64,000 nt of DNA, from positions 310,001-374,000 of the forward strand of contig JACHLF010000003.1 of NCBI GenBank assembly GCA_014204435.1, read 5' to 3'. The translations under genes and the position numbers were made by a program. Positions 51,663 to 52,071 of this stretch are shown one piece after another. Within the stretch, counting starts at the first letter, position 1. Each line of letters begins with the position of its first letter. The notes beneath the pieces were generated by a model. It saw nothing but the letters and a program-made list of their open reading frames with translations, was not told where the DNA came from and did not search any database. Source of the DNA: Mycobacteroides chelonae (GTDB lineage: Bacteria; Actinomycetota; Actinomycetes; Mycobacteriales; Mycobacteriaceae).

Positions 51663-51702
51663 ACCGGGACGACCCGGTAATTGTTCGCCAGGGGACGGCC
51701 TC
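51663..51702 (+). ncRNA. Candidate guanidine-II riboswitch (mini-ykkC)
   Basis: Two small hairpins with ACGR tetraloops. The first is ACCGGG-ACGA-CCCGGT at 51663-51678. After a 12-nt linker comes GGGG-ACGG-CCTC at 51691-51702. Paired short stems with ACGR loops 7-40 nt apart are the defining pattern of the mini-ykkC motif, which binds guanidinium and typically precedes SMR-type exporters. The ribosome binding site GGAGA (51713-51717) and the ATG (51726) of a sugE-like gene follow at the expected distance. Confidence 0.8.
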
Positions 51703-51725
51703 ACCGAAATGTGGAGATATCTCTC

Positions 51726-52071
51726 ATGGTTTGGCTGGTCCTCATTCTGGCGATCTACTCGAAGTAGGTTGGGCCATCGGCCTCAAGTACACCGAGGGCT
51801 TCGCCCGGCTGTGGCCGACAGTCGGTACCGTCGGATCGATGATCATCTTCATCGCGTTGCTCGGCATCGTGATGAAGAGCCTGCCGGTCGGCACCGGGTA
51901 CGCGATCTGGGTGGGAGTGGGTGCCGTGGGGAATGCGATCCTGGGCAGCGTGCTGTTCGGTGACTCGCCAACATATGGCGGCTGCTCAGCCGGGCATTGA
52001 TCGTCGCCGGCATCATCAGTCTGAAACTGGCCTCCCTACAACGCAAACCGGCGAGGGTAACCGGCGAGTGA
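51726..52071 (+). pseudogene. Frameshifted SMR exporter, SugE/Gdx type
   Basis: Small multidrug resistance protein split over three frames. ATG 51726 reads MVWLVLILAIYS and hits a stop after one lost base; the key Glu and next part are in frame two (EVGWAIGLKYTEGFARLWPT to YAIWVGVGAVGNAILGSVLF GDSP). After a second shift the last helix reads WRLLSRALIVAGIISLKLAS, ending with TGA at 52069-52071. GWAIGLKY and the GVGAVGNAILG helix are the SugE subclass, now known as guanidinium exporters. At about 346 bp the length is normal, so only the indels inactivate it. Confidence 0.85.

What the first reader, a model, noticed from the sequence alone, without database searches (positions are those of the whole stretch)
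51663..52071. Guanidine-II riboswitch left in front of a frameshifted SugE/Gdx exporter
Two hairpins with ACGA and ACGG tetraloops (51663-51678, 51691-51702) match the mini-ykkC pattern and stand directly before an SMR gene of the guanidinium-exporter subclass that has two frameshifts. The RNA looks intact while the gene it would control is broken, a natural loss of guanidine export, or a very recent inactivation.
Basis: partly seen in the sequence, partly recalled or inferred. Interest (0 to 1): 0.75.

Follow-up and report, generated by a model that had tools for sequence, protein, structure and literature searches.

The report
Relic of a guanidine-switched exporter gene
In this Mycobacteroides-type bacterium a predicted guanidine-sensing RNA still stands in front of the genome's only small-multidrug-resistance (SMR) exporter gene, but that gene is split over three reading frames and has many further changes, so the cell has probably lost its dedicated route for pumping out guanidine, and did so some time ago.

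Summary
Rfam calls a Guanidine-II aptamer at 51661-51702 (32.2 bits, cut-off 32), 23 bases before a SugE/Gdx-type SMR gene whose pieces lie in three frames (51726-51752, 51755-51967, 51970-52035) and whose stop codon is gone. Nine related genomes keep the RNA and an intact gene at the same place; the nearest is probably M. saopaulense. It is the only SMR gene found in this genome.

(1) Probably not very recent: 8 of 102 readable residues are private to this copy (relatives 0-4), including the site of Gdx-Clo Ser42, which guanidinium transport needs; dN/dS to the sister is 0.45, against 0.03-0.06 between the sister and the eight other intact copies. (2) The RNA is intact only as an aptamer: on this branch the leader changed in a -10-like hexamer, the Shine-Dalgarno core and the linker. 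The predicted OFF fold beats the P2-forming fold by 5.4-8.3 kcal/mol in relatives but 0.2 here. At the neutral rate the two hairpins had about a 22% chance of staying unhit, so their survival needs no selection.

Most likely: an old natural loss of a riboswitch-controlled guanidinium exporter. Ordinary decay, well resolved.

The parts
51647..51655 (+). extended -10-like element (TGN plus hexamer) just upstream of the aptamer; its second hexamer position is invariant in 9 of 9 relatives and differs here
   Evidence: alignment A1. Promoter role is predicted: hexamer is not the TANNNT consensus in any of the ten, and a sigma-70-type scan found nothing
51661..51702 (+). Guanidine-II (mini-ykkC) riboswitch aptamer; P1 51663-51678 (ACGA loop), linker, P2 51691-51702 (ACGG loop)
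   Evidence: Rfam RF01068, 32.2 bits, cut-off 32; present in 10 of 10 genomes with the orthologue
51703..51728 (+). predicted expression platform: Shine-Dalgarno core (about 51713-51717, altered here) and start codon (51726-51728), which in the relatives are predicted to be locked by pairing with the P2 region
   Evidence: ViennaRNA folds of the ten leaders; no covariation support because the pairs hardly vary
51726..51752 (+). SMR gene, first piece (residues 1-9)
   Evidence: reading frame and alignment to nine intact orthologues
51755..51967 (+). SMR gene, middle piece (residues 11-81) in a second frame
   Evidence: PF00893 63.4 bits, NF008512 90.2 bits
51970..52035 (+). SMR gene, last piece (residues 83-104) in a third frame; the stop codon of the relatives is gone and the frame runs to 52071
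   Evidence: NF008512 19.0 bits, E 0.0013
52112..52117 (+). TANNNT motif 13-14 bases before the pyruvate kinase start, present in 10 of 10 genomes; suggests that the next gene has its own promoter and does not depend on the relic

Best explanation
This is a guanidine-II aptamer in front of an SMR (SugE/Gdx-type) gene split over three reading frames, likely the decayed relic of a riboswitch-controlled guanidinium exporter that the relatives still carry intact. In the relatives the leader is predicted to work as a translational ON switch: without guanidine the P2 region pairs with the Shine-Dalgarno sequence and the start codon; guanidine binding to the two ACGR loops would hold P1 and P2 together, free the ribosome site and let the exporter be made (known for the class, inferred here). 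In the window's lineage the gene was likely lost well before today, and the promoter-like hexamer and ribosome-binding site then drifted with it, while the 28 bases of the two hairpins were likely spared by chance. Shown: the aptamer match, the three frames, the lost stop, the private residues, the leader changes, the intact relatives, and that no second SMR gene was found. Inferred: guanidinium as substrate, promoter position, switch mechanism, loss of function in the cell.
For: Rfam match; same RNA-gene pair in nine other genomes, gene intact, 91-100% identical to the query, no stops inside, always before pyruvate kinase (searches find the pyk start downstream in 10 of 10). Proteins of this type in Mycobacteroides are widespread in the databases, some clusters with about 900-1000 contigs. 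In the window copy: three frames, stop codon lost, 8 private residues in 102 readable codons against 0, 1, 1, 1, 1, 2, 3, 3, 4 in the relatives; the eight sites are 46-48 of 48 conserved in the 104-residue database proteins P0001-P0050. One is the site of Gdx-Clo Ser42 (ungapped alignment), whose S42A mutant loses guanidinium currents (PMC9000954, passages). dN/dS to the sister G050 0.45, against 0.031-0.055 between G050 and the eight other intact copies; 5 of 132 gene pairs G000-G050 reach 0.45; pyk next door 0.007. Leader: 3 changes on this branch, none on G050's, in 81 columns. Predicted OFF-minus-P2 energy gap 5.4-8.3 kcal/mol in nine relatives, 0.2 here. Only one PF00893 match in the genome.
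Against: The Rfam score is only 0.2 bits over the cut-off. dN/dS of the window copy against the eight more distant relatives is 0.09-0.17, i.e. mostly inherited constraint, so the date of the loss is not sharp. The OFF fold rests on energies; the pairs show no compensatory change. The promoter-like hexamer departs from TANNNT in all ten genomes, and the sigma-70 scan found no site. No reads and no second strain of this species were available. Substrate specificity is inferred from family membership.
Confidence: 0.88

Rival explanations
1. The frameshifts are sequencing or assembly errors and the exporter gene is intact in the cell.
For: The assembly is a 21-contig draft; no reads could be inspected; in a 400 kb comparison 13 of 231 genes of the sister looked broken in G000.
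Against: The lost stop codon, 8 private residues at conserved sites and 3 leader changes are substitutions, not indels, and gather in this locus. 218 of 231 genes are intact, and the reverse count is similar (217 of 226 intact), so G000 is not frameshift-ridden.
Confidence: 0.03
2. The gene was knocked out only very recently and the riboswitch is still a working RNA.
For: All bases of the two hairpins match the sister; the aptamer still passes Rfam.
Against: Several independent lesions, private residues and raised dN/dS; leader changes in the promoter-like hexamer and Shine-Dalgarno core; unhit hairpins are expected with probability about 0.22 even without selection.
Confidence: 0.06
3. The leader is kept as an orphan guanidine-responsive RNA with another task, for example acting on the next gene (pyk), on a short peptide that now starts at the old start codon, or in trans.
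For: Aptamer core unhit; the first piece still forms a short open frame from the old start codon.
Against: pyk has its own conserved TANNNT motif in 10 of 10 genomes, 13-14 bases before its start; promoter-like and ribosome-site elements of the leader have changed; no intact relative carries such a short frame.
Confidence: 0.03

Closest known systems
Guanidine-II (mini-ykkC) riboswitch, Rfam RF01068, as in E. coli gdx/sugE
   Same: two GC-rich hairpins with ACGR loops, short linker, directly before a SugE-type SMR gene; translational ON switch in print (PMC12186494, PMC9300104, passages)
   Different: in a mycobacterial lineage, while the class is described as mostly proteobacterial (PMC12186494, passage); the predicted anti-Shine-Dalgarno is mainly the P2 region here, whereas for E. 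coli the linker is proposed (PMC9300104, passage); gene broken
Gdx/SugE guanidinium exporters (Gdx-Clo, PDB 6wk5)
   Same: intact relatives align without gaps over residues 1-103, E 4e-28 and pass the SugE equivalog cut-off
   Different: the window copy is in three frames and lacks the Ser42-equivalent residue
Intact riboswitch-gdx pair of the Mycobacteroides group (M. saopaulense, M. abscessus, M. chelonae, M. immunogenum, M. franklinii, M. salmoniphilum proteins by name)
   Same: for the nine genomes compared, same place before pyk, same RNA, same gene
   Different: intact there, decayed here

Membership tests
Guanidine-II riboswitch | Rfam covariance model over the curated cut-off | tested here: met
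   32.2 bits against 32
Guanidine-II riboswitch | two hairpins with ACGR loops | tested here: met
   ACGA and ACGG; conserved in 10 of 10
Guanidine-II riboswitch | expression platform that hides the Shine-Dalgarno sequence without ligand | tested here: inconclusive
   predicted in nine relatives (gap 5.4-8.3 kcal/mol), nearly gone in the window (0.2); no covariation
Guanidine-II riboswitch | binds guanidine | not testable with these tools
   needs in-line probing
Gdx/SugE guanidinium exporter | SugE equivalog NF008512 over cut-off | tested here: not met
   window pieces 90.2 and 19.0 bits against 126; intact sister 150.4
Gdx/SugE guanidinium exporter | one open frame of about 104 residues | tested here: not met
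   three frames in the window; one frame in 9 of 9 relatives
Gdx/SugE guanidinium exporter | hydrogen-bond stack Trp16/Glu13/Ser42/Trp62 (PMC9000954, passages) | tested here: not met
   Ser42 equivalent replaced in the window; present in 9 of 9 relatives and 47 of 48 database proteins
Gdx/SugE guanidinium exporter | transports guanidinium | not testable with these tools
   needs a transport assay
Pseudogene by natural decay | relaxed constraint on this branch only | tested here: met
   private residues 8 against 0-4; dN/dS 0.45 to the sister against 0.03-0.06 for the sister with eight others
Pseudogene by natural decay | same lesions in other strains of the species or in reads | not tested
   one genome per species held; no reads

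The most novel reading that the evidence does not exclude
A whole lineage has abandoned dedicated guanidinium export while its relatives hold it under strong constraint: the sole SMR transporter, its predicted promoter and its riboswitch platform have decayed together, leaving a naturally export-negative mycobacterium that still carries an aptamer able to bind guanidine with nothing left to control, or with a new target yet to be found.
Probability: 0.3. Interest if true: 0.5.

Novelty: new member of a known kind. Interest (0 to 1): 0.35.

Why it matters
Why bacteria need to expel guanidine is an open question. A pair of sister lineages, one with a strongly conserved riboswitch-controlled exporter and one in which the same locus is decaying, is a natural comparison for asking when export is dispensable. 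It also cautions against reading an intact short aptamer as a working riboswitch: here 28 bases were likely spared by chance while the parts that would make the RNA and read it out had changed.

Tried and rejected
A first gene census with unfiltered open frames gave 50 of 239 and 42 of 237 'broken' genes; the lists were full of antisense frames, so it was redone with a codon-position GC filter (13 of 231 and 9 of 226, still with some doubtful frames). A first pyk comparison was read in a wrong frame (pyk columns) and was redone. One search stopped with an error after its first pair. Exact aptamer search in the genome collection gave nothing; phage records gave no match. Guanidine carboxylase loss as a companion event was considered: the best TIGR02712 match looked interrupted in G000, but the same structure is in 10 of 10 genomes and none passes the cut-off, so it was dropped. 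A scan for sigma-70 promoters and terminators in 51400-52200 found none. Of the guanidine-II matches elsewhere in the phylum (14 of 396 genomes, 6 over cut-off) I looked at 11 places plus L008 and L009: none had an SMR gene; three further places were not looked at. Origin by transfer from Proteobacteria is suggested only: nine intact proteins form one clade inside a group of 78 mainly proteobacterial rows and apart from 20 other mycobacterial SMR proteins, but the outside rows were chosen as nearest hits, few forks are resolved, the root is a midpoint and the program warns of long branches.

Papers: all papers cited were seen as passages only, not read whole. Print searches: 'guanidine-II riboswitch'+'Actinobacteria' (3 papers), 'mini-ykkC'+'Mycobacterium' (4 papers; passages of two seen, neither passage places mini-ykkC in mycobacteria; the supplementary lists were not seen), 'riboswitch'+'pseudogene'+'guanidin' (9 papers, listing only). 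I therefore do not claim that the mycobacterial copy is unreported.

Full report
Observation. The window has one Rfam match at gathering threshold, RF01068 Guanidine-II at 51661-51702 on the + strand, 32.2 bits against a cut-off of 32; it is the only match in the whole 3.95 Mb genome. Downstream, after 23 bases, starts an SMR gene in three pieces and three frames: 51726-51752, 51755-51967 and 51970-52035. The middle piece matches PF00893 with 63.4 bits and the SugE equivalog NF008512 with 90.2 bits, the last piece the same model with 19.0 bits. The relatives' stop codon is gone, so that the third frame runs to 52071.

Relatives. A protein search of 396 genomes of the genus finds nine genomes with an intact orthologue, 91-100% identical to the query (a relative's protein), no stops inside, and then a clear gap to other SMR proteins at 45-55%. 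All nine have the guanidine-II RNA in front: seven over the cut-off, two at 30.2 bits. The gene is followed by pyruvate kinase in 10 of 10. G309 and G190 correspond to Mycobacteroides sp. LB1 and Mycobacterium sp. D16Q13; the closest, G050, is probably M. saopaulense, because its protein is identical to P0001, named so, on a contig of the same length. The database holds 50 rows of 94-100% identity before a drop to 85-86%, those with names in Mycobacteroides or Mycobacterium. Of 20 other mycobacterial SMR loci, none has an Rfam match at gathering threshold; of the 20 nearest non-mycobacterial loci that I scanned out of 78 held, 8 have Guanidine-II. In the draw of 297 genus genomes, 11 had a guanidine-II match: nine of this group and two others, one inside a repetitive coding stretch and one before a different transporter.

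Natural decay, not error, and probably not very recent. Between the window's genome and G050 four-fold sites differ at 10.8% (32,899 sites, 133 gene pairs). In the 102 readable codons of the SMR gene, 8 residues occur in none of the nine relatives; each relative has 0-4 private residues in the same codons. In 48 database proteins of 104 residues (P0001-P0050 less two of other length) these eight sites are conserved in 46 to 48. One is the counterpart of Ser42 of Gdx-Clo, aligned without gaps; in Gdx-Clo S42A eliminates guanidinium currents (PMC9000954, passages; PMC9574504, passages). dN/dS is 0.45 to G050, against 0.031-0.055 between G050 and the eight other intact copies; against the eight more distant relatives the window copy gives 0.09-0.17, which reflects mostly inherited constraint. 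Of 132 gene pairs between the two genomes 5 reach 0.45, the pooled value is 0.12, and pyk next door has 0.007. In a comparison of about 400 kb, 218 of 231 genes of G050 are intact in G000 and 217 of 226 of G000 in G050, so the assembly is not ridden with frameshifts; the 13 and 9 broken ones include doubtful frames.

The leader. In 81 aligned leader columns the window differs from G050 at three, all changed on the window's branch and none on G050's. One lies in an extended -10-like element (TGN plus hexamer) whose second hexamer position is the same in 9 of 9 relatives; one in the linker; one in the Shine-Dalgarno core. In M. tuberculosis TANNNT is the main -10 motif, and a preceding TGN goes with higher activity (PMC3898074, passages); here the hexamer lacks the first T in all ten genomes and a consensus scan found no promoter, so the promoter is a prediction. 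Folding of the ten natural leaders gives in the nine relatives a lowest-energy state in which the P2 region, the Shine-Dalgarno sequence and the start codon pair with one another; forcing P2 costs 5.4 to 8.3 kcal/mol. In the window the two states differ by 0.2 kcal/mol and P2 has a probability of 0.18 instead of 0.00. This would be the translational ON switch described for the class (PMC12186494, PMC9300104, passages), biased open here. There is no covariation in its favour, since the pairs hardly vary. With half the four-fold divergence as neutral rate, 1.5 changes are expected in the 28 hairpin bases and none is seen with probability 0.22; so the intact aptamer needs no selection.

Consequences. 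G000 has one PF00893 match, this gene, no match to the riboswitch-linked Na/Ca-exchanger-type transporter at E 1e-30 and no urea-carboxylase-type match over the cut-off, which is also true of the nine relatives. Loss of the gene thus likely removes the only dedicated guanidinium exporter of known kind; other routes were not surveyed. The next gene, pyk, has a TANNNT motif 13-14 bases before its start in 10 of 10 genomes, so it probably does not depend on the relic.

Verdict. The finding is real and well resolved: a relic of a riboswitch-controlled guanidinium exporter in a lineage next to M. saopaulense, with the aptamer as the last recognisable working part. As a kind it is ordinary gene decay in a known riboswitch-gene pair. 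A separate lead, a guanidine-II RNA before a Na/Ca-exchanger-type transporter in five actinobacterial genomes, is told under things noticed.

Noticed in passing
L009:1501-1547 with ORF 1564-2715; L194:1406-1451; L195:1411-1455; L196:1423-1467; L197:1441-1484 (all +): A guanidine-II RNA stands shortly before a ChaA-like cation antiporter gene (Pfam Na_Ca_ex, tested for two of the five) in 5 of 5 close homologues (63-70% identical to the L009 protein, and L009 itself) from three actinobacterial families: 40.3 and 36.7 bits over the cut-off, 30.8, 30.4 and 23.9 below it. None of 20 remoter homologues (31-36%) has a match at gathering threshold (the laxer threshold was not tried on them, and six more remote loci were not scanned). 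One of the five (L196) has a TAG inside the match. It may be a second, unrelated kind of guanidinium exporter; a text search for guanidine-II with ChaA found one paper, where ChaA is only part of a strain's genotype.
   Followed up: partly
L012-L013, L092-L100: The intact guanidine-II/gdx pair of the Mycobacteroides group is nearer to proteobacterial SugE proteins than to 20 other mycobacterial SMR proteins, which suggests entry by horizontal transfer; tree poorly resolved.
   Followed up: partly
window 52126: pyruvate kinase starts with ATG here but with GTG at the same place in 9 of 9 relatives.
   Followed up: no
G000:C1:127019-129094 (L224) and counterparts in nine relatives: A urea-carboxylase-like (TIGR02712 positions about 446-1145) gene region without the biotin carboxylase part, with stop codons inside the match, has the same make-up in 10 of 10 genomes; below the cut-off in all. 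Probably a different, conserved enzyme pair.
   Followed up: partly
G000 (whole genome): At 3.95 Mb the window's genome is smaller than its nine relatives (about 4.6-5.6 Mb), which would fit a lineage that is losing genes.
   Followed up: no
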